Shown here: positions 50,191 through 55,589 of the stretch, one piece after another
How the letters are laid out: each line of letters begins with the position of its first letter
How positions within the stretch are numbered: the stretch's first letter is position 1
From: an uncultured Anaerolineae bacterium
Lineage (GTDB): Bacteria; Chloroflexota; Anaerolineae; J036; Brachytrichaceae
Reading direction: 5' to 3'
Assembly: GCA_938028725.1 (NCBI GenBank)
Contig: CALIMH010000004.1
Coordinates: 124,001-188,000, forward strand
DNA length: 64,000 bases
Position numbers and translations under genes: made by a program
Notes under the pieces: generated by a model
What the model was told of the DNA's origin: nothing
Databases searched by the model: none
Seen by the model: the letters and a program-made list of their open reading frames with translations, nothing else

Positions 50191-50236
50191 CAACGCGAGG
50201 CGCCGGCTGGCTCAAGCCAGCCGGCGCCTCGTTGTT
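50191..50236. terminator. Bidirectional terminator hairpin between ppdK and crtI
   Basis: A perfect 15-base stem (50197-50211 with 50216-50230) has the loop TCAA. Outer bases CAAC (50191-50194) and GTTG (50231-50234) can extend it with a two-base bulge. The T run is poor, but the stem is very GC-rich and sits between two convergent genes. Confidence 0.8.
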
Positions 50237-51855
50237 CACAGCTTGAAGTCTTCCGCAATCAGGCGCGCCGTCATTTTGGCGCTCATCATCACGCTGGGCG
50301 TGCCGCCGCCAGGTTGAACGCCCGCGCCGACCAAATACAGTCGCTCGATGTCCTCGCTGCGGTTGTGTGGGCGGAAGTAGGCCGTTTGCGTCAAGCGCGG
50401 CTCTGGACCAAAGGCGTTGCCCACGTAGCTGTTCAACGTGTCCTCAAAGTAGTCTGGGGTGATGAAGCTTTTGTAGACCAGCCGCTCGCACAAGCCGGGG
50501 ATGTAGCCGCGCTCGTCGAGGAAGCGCAGCACCCGATCCACCAACGCCGGCCCCTGCGTGCGCCAGTCGAGGCTTGCGCCGCGCCCCGCCTTATTCGGCA
50601 CCGGCACCAACGTGTAGGCAGCATGGTGGCCAGGCGGCGCCAAGCTGGGGTCGGTCAGCGTGGGGACGTGCAGATACTGCGAGAAGTCCTCTGAAAGCAC
50701 TTTGCGCTCGAAAATATCCTGTAACAGACCTTCGTAGCGCGGGCCGAGGATGATGTTGTGGTGGCGCAAGTCCAGGTTGAGGTTGTCCGCCTTAAAGCCG
50801 AAGTAGATCACCAGCAGTGACATGGAATACTGGGTGCGGCGGATGCGCCGGTCGGTGTGGAAGAGGCGATAGCGCGGGTCGATGAGGCGCATGTAGGTGT
50901 TGGCGTAGTCGCCGTTGGAGACCACCACGTCGGCCGGTATCACCTCGCCGCTGGTGAGTTGCACGCCGCGCGCCACCTTGCGCCCGAAGCGCGAGGGCTC
51001 GCCGCCATCCGGCGCAGTGACGATGATGCGCGAGACCTCGCTGTTGTAGCGGATGCGCCCCCCCAGCTCCTCGAACTTGCGCACGAATGCCTGCACCAGC
51101 GCGCCCGTGCCGCCCATGGCGAAGTGGATGCCCCATGTTTTCTCCACGAAGTGGATCATCGCGTAGATGGCCGGCACGGCGAGCGGGTTGCCGCCGATCA
51201 GCAGCGGCTCAAAGCTGAACACGCGGCGCAGCTTGTCGCTCTTGAAGTAGCGGCTGGTGAAGGAGAACAGCGTGCGCACGGCGTCCAGTCGCAACAAGTC
51301 CGGCATCACTGCGAGCATCGAGGCGAGCGAGCCAAAGTGGGTGTAGCCGAGCTGTAGAAAGCCACGCTCGAAGATCGCCTTCGCCGCTGCATGGAAGCGC
51401 TCGTAGCCCTCCAAGTCATCGGGACAAATAGCGCGGATTTGCTCGCGCGTGTGCAGCGGATCGCCGTCGTAGTCGAAGCACGTGCCGTCGTCGAAGTAAA
51501 TGCGGTAGAACGGCTGGATGGGGACGATCTGCACGTAGCGCGAAGTGTGTGGGCCGCCGCTGATGCCCTGGGTGATCCGCTGGCGCTCATCCAGCACCGA
51601 CGGGGGGAAGTCCGGCCCATCCAAATTAGGCTGGCCGCGCTCCAACGCGAACAGCTCCTCGATGAAATGTGGGACGGTGATCACCGTCGGCCCCATGTCG
51701 AAGGTGAAACCATTGGCGCGGCGCACGTAGGCCCGCCCGCCGGGGCCATCCAGCTTCTCAACCACGGTGGTGTCGAAGCCCATGCTCTGCAGACGAATCG
51801 CCAGCGACAGCCCGCCAAATCCCGAACCGATGATGACTGCTTTCAAGTTAGCCAT
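50236..51855 (-). CDS. crtI: Phytoene desaturase (CrtI family)
   Basis: The 539 residues match a CrtI-type FAD enzyme, which introduces double bonds into phytoene on the way to lycopene or neurosporene. The N-terminal FAD loop is [16 protein letters not shown], then [12 protein letters not shown] and [17 protein letters not shown]. The C-terminal signature is [22 protein letters not shown]. The start is the ATG at 51855 (MANLKAV); the open frame upstream runs antisense to metF. A CATAAT box ends ten bases before the ATG. No phytoene synthase is present beside it. Confidence 0.95.
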
Positions 51856-51865
51856 ATAGCTAGCG

Positions 51866-51871
51866 ATTATG
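51866..51871 (-). promoter_or_regulatory. -10 element for crtI
   Basis: CATAAT on the minus strand ends ten bases before the crtI ATG, with no ribosome site between. Confidence 0.4.
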
Positions 51872-51905
51872 AGCAAGCAACCTAAGTGTTCACTGTGAGC
51901 CGCAG

Positions 51906-51911
51906 TACACT
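51906..51911 (+). promoter_or_regulatory. -10 element for metF
   Basis: TACACT ends ten bases before the metF ATG at 51922. It is divergent from the crtI promoter 35 bases away. Confidence 0.4.
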
Positions 51912-51921
51912 CTGCTGAGCT

Positions 51922-52806
51922 ATGCACATCGCTCAGGTGTTGCGTCGGCCTGGCACCCATTTCAGCTTCGAGTTCTTCCCGCCGAAGACCGAGGAGGCCT
52001 CGCAGCAGCTCTTCGAGTCCATCCGCGAGCTGGTGCCGTTGCGCCCCTCGTTTGTGAGTGTCACCTATGGCGCTGGCGGTAGCACACGCGCGCTCACGCG
52101 CGACTTGGTGATCCGCTTGCAGCGTGAGACGCGCTTGACTGTGGTGGCGCACATCACCGCCATCGGCGCTAGCCGACAGGATGTGCACCAACTCCTGGAA
52201 GACTACGCCCAAGCCGGCGTGGAAAACCTCATGGTGCTGCGCGGTGACCCGCCGCGCGGCGCAACTCACTTCGTGCCGCATCCGGATGGCTTTCGCTACG
52301 CAGCGGAGATCGTTGCCCATGTCAAGCGCCACTTCCCTCACTTCGGCATTGGCGTGGCCGGCTTTCCCGAGGGCCACCCCGAAACCCCAAACCGGCTGAA
52401 GGAAATGGACTACCTGAAAGCCAAGGTGGATGCTGGCGCGGACTACATCTGCACCCAGCTCTTCTTCGACAACCGCGACTTTTACGACTTCTGCGAGCGC
52501 TGTGAGATCGCGGGCATCCACGTGCCGATTGTGGCGGGCATTATGCCGATCACCTCACGCCAAGGCATGATCCGCATAGCAGAGCTGGCGCTCGGCGCGC
52601 GCATCCCCGCGCCGCTGTTGCGGGCGGTGCTGCAGGCGGAGGACGACGCCGCGGTGGAGCGCATTGGCATTCACTGGGCCACCCAGCAGGTGTTCGACCT
52701 GATCAACCATCATGTCCGCGGCGTGCACTTCTACACGCTCAATCGCTCCAAGCCCACCTTGCGGATTTACGAGGTGGTGGGCCAGCAGCTCGCTGTGAGC
52801 GCATGA
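51922..52806 (+). CDS. metF: 5,10-methylenetetrahydrofolate reductase
   Basis: This 294-residue FAD enzyme makes 5-methyltetrahydrofolate for methionine synthesis. The opening [17 protein letters not shown] carries the conserved Glu-Phe-Phe-Pro-Pro-Lys. [43 protein letters not shown] and [10 protein letters not shown] follow in the usual TIM-barrel order. The length is standard. It is divergent from crtI, and sucD follows about 106 bases downstream under its own promoter. Confidence 0.95.
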
Positions 52807-53796: not shown

Positions 53797-54375
53797 CTAC
53801 TCCGGCATACGATGCTGAACTAAGCCGGCGTAGTCCAGCGGCCACACCACCAGCCAGGCGCGACCGACCAACTGGGCTGCTGACACTGGCCCGAAAGCAC
53901 GGCTGTCGCGGGCGTCGGCCGAGTTGTCGTTCAGCACGAACAGCTCGTTGGCCCGCAGGATGCGTGCGCCGCTGAACGCTGGCTGATCGAGCTGGAGCGT
54001 GCCGTTGAAGCTGGCGGTGCGGAGTGGCTGGTTGTTGACCTGAATCCCGCTCTCATCCACCTGCACCTTGTCGCCTGGCAGCGCAACCACGCGCGAAAGA
54101 TGCTCAGCGCCGTCCTCAGCGCGCAGCAGGACCACATCGCCGCGCCGTAGCTCCATCACCAGCGTAGGCAAGCGGCTCACCAGCACGATTTGCTCCACTT
54201 GCAAAGTGGGAGCCATGCGATTGTCCGCCACCATGTGCACGCTCACCGATGCGGCGATCGCGCCGGCCACGAGGACCATGGCAAGTATCCCTTCGAGTAG
54301 CCGCCGCAGAGCGCGGGCTGTTTGGCGTGGTGCTGAGAGAAGCAGCTTGTGGTCGCTGGCAGCACTGGTGTTCAT
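53797..54375 (-). CDS. Signal peptidase I-like protein lacking the catalytic Ser-Lys dyad
   Basis: The 192 residues align with type I signal peptidase: an N-terminal helix (GILAMVLVAGAIAASVSV), box B region, RGDVVLL, RVVALPGDKVQV (box D), and DARDSRAFGPV (box E). In active enzymes the Ser-Met of box B supplies the nucleophile; here it reads DNRMAPTL, with Arg53. The general-base Lys before RVIGLPGD is Ser94 (HLSRVVALPGD). Both changes are in intact codons with no frameshift. The ATG overlaps the aspC stop at ATGA, so the two are translationally coupled. It may be a pseudoenzyme or have a different partner. Confidence 0.75.
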   Translation of the reverse strand: MNTSAASDHKLLLSAPRQTARALRRLLEGILAMVLVAGAIAASVSVHMVADNRMAPTLQVEQIVLVSRLPTLVMELRRGDVVLLRAEDGAEHLSRVVALPGDKVQVDESGIQVNNQPLRTASFNGTLQLDQPAFSGARILRANELFVLNDNSADARDSRAFGPVSAAQLVGRAWLVVWPLDYAGLVQHRMPE

Positions 54376-55589
54376 GCGAATGTGAGTGCGTCCTGAATGC
54401 GGGCCAGGCCTTCTTGGATCAGGTCCAGCGACATGGCGTAGCTCAAGCGGGCGCAGCCAGGCGCGCCGAAAGCCTCGCCATGCACGATGCCCACCTTCAC
54501 GCTGTCCAGCAAGTAGAGTGCCAGTTCCTCGCTGGTGTGACAGGTGCGGCCGTAGCGCAGCGGCTTGCCAAGCACACCGCTCAAGTCGGGGAAAGCGTAG
54601 AAGGCGCCCTCCGGCATCACACAGCGCACGCCGGGGATCGCGTTGAGCGCAGACACGATCCAGTCGCGTCGCTCCTTGAACGCTGCCACCATGCGGGCGA
54701 TGTCTGCCTCGAGGTCGGTGGTGTAGGCTTTGACGGCTGCGGCCTGGGTGATCGAGGTGGGGTGGGAGTTGCTGTGGCTTTGAATCTTCAGCATCGCCTT
54801 GATGATCCACTCCGGCCCAACTGCGTAGCCCAGCCGCCAGCCGGTCATGGCGTAGGCCTTGGACAAGCCGTTGATCACCACCGTGCGATCGTAGAGGTCG
54901 GGCGCGACGCGCAACCAACGCGGGTAATGGTCGGTGAACACAATGCGGTCGTATAGCTCATCGCTCAGCACGATCACGTCGTGGCGGCGCGCCCAGCGCG
55001 CGATGTCCTCCAGCTCTGACTCACTGTACACCATGCCAGTTGGGTTAGAGGGCGAGTTCAGTACCAGCACGCGCGTGCGCGAGGTGGTGTAGCGCTCCAG
55101 CTTATCGCCACTCGCCTTGAAGTGCTCATCAGCGGTGGTGGGGACAATCACAGGCGTCGCCTCGGCCAAGCGCACCTGCTCCACGTAGCTCACCCAGTAC
55201 GGCGCGATGATCAGCACCTCGTCGCCGCGCTCGCACAGCGCCTGGAAGGCTAGGTACAGCGACTCTTTGCCGCCGGTATGAGCGGCCACCTGCGCAGCGG
55301 TGTAGGTCAGCCCGGTCTTGGCGCTCTCGTGAGCAGCGATGGCCTCTTTCAGCGCGGCCATACCGCCGGTTTCGGTGTAGCGGGTGAAGTTGTTGCGGAT
55401 GGCTTCGACAGCAGCCTGCTTGATCGGCTCCGGCGTGGGGAAGTCTGGCTCGCCGGCGCCGAAGCCGATCACTGGCTCACCTGCGGCGCGCAGTTGCTTC
55501 ACGCGGCCTTCGACCGCCATAGTGGCCGATGGCAGCACGGCTTGCACCCGCGCGCTCAGCTTGCGTGTGATGGGTGTGGCTTCGGTCAT
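54372..55589 (-). CDS. aspC: Aspartate aminotransferase, class I/II (Ib-type)
   Basis: This 405-residue PLP enzyme transfers amino groups between aspartate and 2-oxoglutarate, and some members also act on prephenate. Motifs are GAGEPDFPTPEPI, RYTETGGMAALKEAI, LNSPSNPTGMVYS, and the PLP lysine Lys244 in GLSKAYAMTGWRLGY. LSYAMSLDLIQEGLARI ends the fold. The start is the ATG at 55589; a TACAAT box (55598-55603, minus strand) ends eight bases before it. The frame continues upstream across the SDR but is antisense there. The dead signal-peptidase homologue is its operon partner. Confidence 0.92.
   Translation of the reverse strand: MTEATPITRKLSARVQAVLPSATMAVEGRVKQLRAAGEPVIGFGAGEPDFPTPEPIKQAAVEAIRNNFTRYTETGGMAALKEAIAAHESAKTGLTYTAAQVAAHTGGKESLYLAFQALCERGDEVLIIAPYWVSYVEQVRLAEATPVIVPTTADEHFKASGDKLERYTTSRTRVLVLNSPSNPTGMVYSESELEDIARWARRHDVIVLSDELYDRIVFTDHYPRWLRVAPDLYDRTVVINGLSKAYAMTGWRLGYAVGPEWIIKAMLKIQSHSNSHPTSITQAAAVKAYTTDLEADIARMVAAFKERRDWIVSALNAIPGVRCVMPEGAFYAFPDLSGVLGKPLRYGRTCHTSEELALYLLDSVKVGIVHGEAFGAPGCARLSYAMSLDLIQEGLARIQDALTFA

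What the first reader, a model, noticed from the sequence alone, without database searches (positions are those of the whole stretch)
53797..54375. Signal peptidase I homologue without its Ser-Lys catalytic dyad
The protein keeps boxes C, D and E and the membrane anchor, but the nucleophile serine is Arg53 (text DNRMAPTL) and the base lysine is Ser94 (text HLSRVVALPGD). The Ser to Arg change could be one base, but the Lys change needs more than one, so a sequencing error is unlikely. It is coupled by ATGA to an aspartate aminotransferase. It may act as a regulator or chaperone of exported proteins, or use a new catalytic set.
Basis: partly seen in the sequence, partly recalled or inferred. Interest (0 to 1): 0.6.

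Follow-up and report, generated by a model that had tools for sequence, protein, structure and literature searches.

The report
Catalytically dead signal peptidase I paralogue
This gene encodes a membrane-anchored relative of the enzyme that trims export signals from secreted proteins, but it has lost the cutting residues, and the same loss is shared by a whole family of Chloroflexota bacteria that also keep a normal copy, so it has probably become a non-cutting helper or binding protein.

Summary
The minus-strand ORF 53797-54375 is a 192-aa type I signal peptidase (SPase I) homologue with Arg53 in place of the nucleophile Ser and Ser94 in place of the base Lys. It is neither an error nor a private mutation: 26 of the 28 held genomes of its family (Thermoflexales, with Ca. 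Roseilinea; 8 genera) carry this paralogue. None of the 26 copies has the Lys, only 4 still have the Ser, and they form one clade (98/90 support with active-site columns removed). 23 of the 28 genomes, this one included, also hold an intact LepB. No comparable loss appeared in about 150 other SPases. Lys-supporting Ser278 and Gly272 are mostly replaced too, while the structural Asp-Asn...Asp-Ser-Arg framework is mostly kept. dN/dS of 0.08-0.27 shows the copies are still selected. Coupling to the aminotransferase is local, not conserved. Most likely it is a non-catalytic binding or adaptor protein; client and role are unknown. Streptococcus SipA and Staphylococcus SpsA are known dyad-less SPases, so the kind is known; this lineage is separate, and I found no report of it in the library searched. 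Curated models still name it 'signal peptidase I'.

The parts
53797..54375 (-). Dyad-less SPase I paralogue (P0001, 192 aa)
   Evidence: Translation; PF10502; TIGR02227; model pLDDT 80.6
54247..54327 (-). Predicted transmembrane anchor helix, residues 17-43
   Evidence: AF2 secondary structure; membrane insertion inferred
54217..54219 (-). Codon 53 CGC (Arg) at the nucleophile position (E. coli Ser90)
54223..54225 (-). Codon 51 GAC (Asp) at the oxyanion-hole position (E. coli Ser88, Gly in most relatives)
54094..54096 (-). Codon 94 TCG (Ser) at the general-base position (E. coli Lys145)
53929..53931 (-). Codon 149 AAC (Asn) at invariant Gly272
53911..53913 (-). Codon 155 GCC (Ala) at Ser278, which supports the catalytic Lys
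54372..55589 (-). Class I/II aminotransferase overlapping the SPase start by ATGA; start codon inferred at 55589
   Evidence: neighbour not conserved in relatives

Best explanation
The gene encodes a catalytically dead paralogue of type I signal peptidase, a pseudoprotease fixed in one Chloroflexota family. Shown by sequence: the ancestor of the clade had lost Lys145 and the Ser278 that supports it; Ser90 and Gly272 were lost or replaced afterwards; the structural framework and the single N-terminal helix were kept; and the copies remain under purifying selection alongside a normal LepB. Inferred: the protein still sits in the membrane with its SPase domain on the outside and uses the old peptide-binding cleft, with altered floor residues, to bind signal peptides, exported proteins or LepB itself without cutting. 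It would then act as an adaptor or holdase for some clients, or modulate LepB access. About 0.75-0.8 that it is non-catalytic yet functional; about 0.5 that binding of exported clients through the cleft is its mode of action.
For: 26 of the 28 held family genomes carry the paralogue. Lys is absent in 26/26 and the Ser position holds R6 G5 S4 T4 A3 V2 H1 N1, against Ser 84/84 and Lys 81/84 (3 His) in other SPases. Ser-Lys was also intact wherever readable in 41 further loci of 29 other class families and in 31 of the best phylum matches. Gly272 is replaced in 23/26, Ser278 is lost in 23/26 and residue 88 is Asp in 16/26; Asp273 and Asn274 are kept in 24/26, Asp280 and Ser281 in 20/26, Arg282 in 24/26. 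One clade: 100/98, and 98/90 without active-site columns; Lys and Ser278 need one loss each on the tree. dN/dS 0.16-0.27 in two genera and 0.08 in one pair of a third, against 0.03-0.18 for LepB. P0001 keeps 30 of 43 strongly conserved columns but matches only 70 of 178 overall. The fold is predicted well. Precedent: SipA, with an intact cleft, no dyad, Gly272 also changed to Asn, no protease activity, yet needed for pili (PMC4049620).
Against: No biochemical test exists. Constraint is weaker than on LepB. P0001 has a very long branch (1.95-2.1 changes per column), and two relatives in genomes of 2.3 Mb (G002, G009) have degenerated further. Some cleft positions changed character (Tyr143 position now often charged or polar, Val132 position Ala in 15/26), so binding of ordinary signal peptides may be lost. 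No conserved partner gene points to a client. In SipA a cleft-blocking mutation had little effect, so the cleft need not be the working surface.
Confidence: 0.6

Rival explanations
1. A decaying relic: the second SPase became redundant, lost catalysis and is drifting away, with no present function in this genome.
For: Long branch of P0001; relaxed dN/dS compared with LepB; frameshifted extra copies of the paralogue in G016 and G026; more degenerate copies in 2.3 Mb genomes; not found in G006 (96% complete).
Against: Open frame of 192 codons with ordinary coding composition by codon position, retention in 26 of 28 genomes of eight genera, dN/dS well below 1, structural motifs kept while catalytic ones vary. 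The dN/dS test could not be run for P0001 itself, since no other genome of its genus is held.
Confidence: 0.2
2. A subunit or regulator of LepB: the dead paralogue pairs with the active copy and alters its specificity, as some pseudoenzyme-enzyme pairs do. (A narrower form of the best explanation; the two overlap.)
For: Both genes occur together in 23 of 28 genomes; the three with only the dead copy are 75-82% complete. Some LepBs of the family have an unusual box B (IEQxSAxPN), hinting at shifted specificity.
Against: The two genes are never adjacent in the fetched loci; no complex could be modelled here; LepB box B changes do not track the state of the dead copy one to one.
Confidence: 0.2
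3. A protease with a new catalytic set that replaced Ser-Lys.
For: Ser67 is invariant in all 26 dead copies and usually Asp or Glu in active ones; a few copies keep Ser90 with Arg or Asn at the Lys position.
Against: Both catalytic positions vary freely; the oxyanion-hole position and Gly272 changed too; Ser67 lies 14 residues after the nucleophile on the following strand, not in the Ser90 loop (inferred from alignment; no coordinates were examined); no conserved base accompanies it.
Confidence: 0.05
4. Sequencing or assembly error in an ordinary LepB.
For: None beyond the single base needed for Ser to Arg.
Against: Loss of the Lys is shared by 25 other assemblies of eight genera, and the intact LepB is elsewhere in the same genome.
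Confidence: 0.01

Closest known systems
Streptococcus pyogenes SipA/LepA (PDB 4n31, 4k8w; PMC4049620)
   Same: SPase I fold with N-terminal anchor, Ser and Lys both replaced (Asp48, Gly85), box-E Gly272 replaced by Asn as in P0001, Ser278 lost; catalytically dead but functional
   Different: Apparently separate origin: the clade profile scores 42.6 bits on SipA but 69-110 bits on active SPases. SipA sits in a pilus/sortase operon; this gene does not, and no sortase was found in this genome
Staphylococcus aureus SpsA
   Same: Dyad-less SPase I homologue in a genome with an active SPase (SpsB); listed as inactive and dispensable (PMC12445088)
   Different: Firmicutes; its sequence was not compared here
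Type I signal peptidase LepB/SpsB (TIGR02227, Pfam PF10502)
   Same: Fold, conserved boxes in part, membrane anchor; passes the curated equivalog cut-off
   Different: Nucleophile, general base and supporting residues absent
iRhom pseudoproteases
   Same: Logic only: dead membrane proteases that act on clients without cutting (PMC3149277, abstract)
   Different: Unrelated fold and biology

Membership tests
Type I signal peptidase (S26, catalytically active) | S26/SPase I fold and sequence family | tested here: met
   PF10502 E 1.1e-26, TIGR02227 97.8 bits; fold matches E. coli LepB 3s04 Z 14.5 (2.7 A, 136 residues) and SipA 4n31 Z 16.1 (2.5 A, 131 residues)
Type I signal peptidase (S26, catalytically active) | Nucleophile Ser in box B | tested here: not met
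   Arg53
Type I signal peptidase (S26, catalytically active) | General base Lys (or His) in box D | tested here: not met
   Ser94
Type I signal peptidase (S26, catalytically active) | Cleavage of signal peptides | not testable with these tools
   Needs an experiment; loss is inferred from residues
Dyad-less SPase-like proteins as a functional kind (SipA, SpsA) | SPase fold, membrane anchor, both dyad residues replaced | tested here: met
Dyad-less SPase-like proteins as a functional kind (SipA, SpsA) | Active SPase elsewhere in the genome | tested here: met
   LepB at G000:C1:102615-103076 with GQSMEPNY and LIKRLIGKPGD
Dyad-less SPase-like proteins as a functional kind (SipA, SpsA) | Absence of peptidase activity shown by assay | not testable with these tools
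   Needs an experiment
SipA family proper | Closer kin to SipA than to active SPases | tested here: not met
   Clade profile scores 4n31 at 42.6 bits, active SPases at 69-110 bits; the intact LepB also has SipA as top fold match, so fold ranking carries no weight
SipA family proper | Pilus gene cluster with sortase | tested here: not met
   No sortase or pilin among neighbouring genes examined; PF04203 not found in the 94.5%-complete genome
SipA family proper | Needed for pilus polymerisation | not testable with these tools
   Needs genetics

The most novel reading that the evidence does not exclude
A whole bacterial family (Thermoflexales, containing Ca. Roseilinea) carries a dedicated non-cutting signal peptidase that recognises a subset of signal peptides or exported proteins and controls their fate, a client-binding layer on top of signal peptide cleavage that I have seen described only for Gram-positive pilus systems.
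Probability: 0.3. Interest if true: 0.65.

Novelty: new variant of a known kind. Interest (0 to 1): 0.42.

Why it matters
Dyad-less SPases were described in a few Firmicutes. Here is an apparently independent, family-wide case whose loss steps can be read off the tree: Lys and its supporting Ser278 are gone in the common ancestor, while Ser and Gly272 persist in some lineages. That makes it a test case for how a protease becomes a binding protein. It is also a practical warning: a curated equivalog model (TIGR02227) scores these proteins well above cut-off as 'signal peptidase I', so the annotation wrongly implies activity.

Tried and rejected
Sequencing error or frameshift: rejected, since 25 other assemblies share the loss. 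Functional link to the coupled aminotransferase: rejected, because neighbours in relatives are malQ, deoC, amidohydrolase, Uma2 or M20 peptidase genes. SipA as structural best match: uninformative, since a control model of the intact LepB (low quality, pLDDT 68) also ranks SipA first, probably because both have short cap domains. Ser67 as a new nucleophile: noted but unlikely. SipA-like sortase/pilus role: unlikely here, as this genome has no PF04203 match, although most relatives do. Nearest active kin of the dead clade: only weak support (SH-aLRT 81 and 91). Literature searches for SPase pseudoenzymes in Chloroflexota or Roseilinea returned nothing relevant; the library lacks most subscription journals.

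Full report
What is there. The finding sits on the minus strand: 54375 down to 53797, 192 codons and a stop. It matches Pfam Peptidase_S26 at E 1.1e-26 and NCBI's signal peptidase I equivalog at 97.8 bits against a cut-off of 47. Box B is VADNRMAPTL, so the nucleophile Ser is Arg53 (CGC). Box D is HLSRVVALPGD, so the general base Lys is Ser94 (TCG). The upstream class I/II aminotransferase ends at 54372 and overlaps the start by ATGA. The statement that box E is kept needs a qualification: it reads NDNSADARDSR, where active enzymes have GDN...S.DSR.

The genome and its intact LepB. The genome (2.28 Mb, 19 contigs, 94.5% complete) yielded exactly one other PF10502 match, with GQSMEPNY and LIKRLIGKPGD, an ordinary LepB.

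Clade-wide loss. All 28 genomes held for the family were searched. In 26 of the 28, in all eight genera, there is a second SPase like P0001; 23 also have an intact LepB, and the three with only the dead copy are 75-82% complete. In the 26 dead copies the Lys position is R12 H6 Y2 L2 S N W A, never Lys. The Ser position is R6 G5 S4 T4 A3 V2 H N. Gly272 is N12 A6 G3 S2 L Q E, and Ser278 is mostly L, A, I, R or F. The oxyanion-hole residue 88 is Asp in 16. Asp273 and Asn274 are kept in 24 of 26, Asp280 and Ser281 in 20, and Arg282 in 24. E. coli numbering was assigned through the conserved motifs. The 84 SPases aligned as controls all have Ser; 81 have Lys and 3, from Dehalococcoidia, have His. 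The dyad is also intact, wherever readable, in 41 more loci from 29 other families of the class and in 31 of the best phylum matches.

One origin and order of loss. A maximum-likelihood tree puts all dead copies on one side of a branch with 100/98 support. With the diagnostic columns removed and three long extra rows left out, support is still 98/90, so the grouping is not produced by the residues in question. On that tree the loss of Lys145 and of Ser278 needs one change each; Ser90 and Gly272 need two. Two copies of genus g7 still have Ser90 and Gly272 but Arg at Lys145 (L075, L047, refetched as L102, L130). The general base and its support therefore went first, the nucleophile and the glycine later (inference from the tree). 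The nearest active kin of the clade is not well resolved.

Is it still a working protein? Pairwise dN/dS (NG86) is 0.18-0.27 for the dead copies in genus g6 (the eight closest pairs), 0.16-0.21 in g8 and 0.08 for one pair in g2, against 0.06-0.18, 0.05-0.09 and 0.03 for LepB in the same genera. This is purifying selection, weaker than on LepB. The larger dS values are near saturation and should be read with care. No other genome of the window's own genus is held, so P0001 was tested indirectly: it keeps 30 of 43 columns conserved in 80% or more of the other dead representatives, against 70 of 178 columns overall, and its base composition by codon position resembles that of neighbouring genes. 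Its branch is long, however, which leaves room for the relic reading.

Structure. AlphaFold2 on the dead-clade alignment gives pLDDT 80.6 with one N-terminal helix and the SPase beta fold. Matches: SipA 4n31_B Z 16.1 (2.5 A, 131 residues), E. coli LepB 3s04_A Z 14.5 (2.7 A, 136 residues). A control model of the intact LepB (pLDDT 68) also ranks SipA first, so that ranking says nothing about catalysis. Of the E. coli cleft residues (identities from my own knowledge of E. coli SPase), the positions of Ile86, Met91, Leu95, Ile101 and Ile144 stay mostly hydrophobic, Val132 becomes Ala in 15 of 26, and the Tyr143 position is often charged or polar. The cleft is probably present but altered.

Neighbourhood. 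The divergent neighbour of the dead copy is 4-alpha-glucanotransferase (malQ) in 17 of the 26 loci, across genera g5-g8; a DeoC-type aldolase lies next to it on the other side in the six g7/g8 loci. The aminotransferase coupling is seen only in the window. No neighbour suggests a client.

Comparison with the known. Dyad-less SPases are known in Gram-positive bacteria. S. pyogenes SipA has Asp48 and Gly85, an intact cleft, no peptidase activity, an essential role in pilus polymerisation, and Asn in place of Gly272, the same change as in P0001 (PMC4049620). S. aureus SpsA is listed as inactive (PMC12445088). The Roseilinea clade is not SipA: its profile scores 42.6 bits on SipA but 69-110 on active SPases, and this genome has no sortase match. 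It looks built to work like a dead SPase, but it is a separate lineage. I found no report of it in the library searched.

Verdict. A real, conserved, non-catalytic signal peptidase paralogue in one Chloroflexota family. Catalytic loss: very likely. Function as a binding or adaptor protein: inferred. Rivals: regulator subunit of LepB, decaying relic, and, least likely, a new catalytic set. Automatic annotation would call it signal peptidase I (97.8, 107.6 and 121.3 bits for three members against a cut-off of 47) and should be read with caution.

Noticed in passing
L044, L046, L048-L050, L052, L055, L056, L058, L059 (LepB loci of genera g2, g5, g7, g8): The intact LepB of these genera has an unusual box B, IEQ(R/T/V)SAxP(N/H)(F/Y): Ser kept but Gly88 is Gln and Met91 is Ala, suggesting altered substrate specificity.
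   Followed up: partly
L062:4726-5162 and L063:5069-5449: G016 and G026 hold fragments of an additional copy of the dead SPase, split between reading frames (apparent pseudogene copies).
   Followed up: no
L143, L145, L146: Dehalococcoidia AH-958 genomes encode an SPase with Ser and His (GFSMEPN / IIHRIVGLPNE), resembling the Ser-His arrangement of archaeal and ER signal peptidases.
   Followed up: no
L093, L107, L110, L147, L148, L154: Pairs of SPase genes with intact dyads lie side by side in several Anaerolineae and other genomes.
   Followed up: no
window 50236-52521: A long minus-strand frame contains a phytoene-desaturase-like FAD protein; its N-terminal part overlaps the plus-strand MTHFR gene starting at 51922 and is probably not coding.
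   Followed up: no
window 54175-54177 (codon 67 of P0001): Ser67 is invariant in all 26 dead copies, where active enzymes mostly have Asp or Glu; it is followed in 22 of 26 by Arg instead of Lys. Role unknown.
   Followed up: partly
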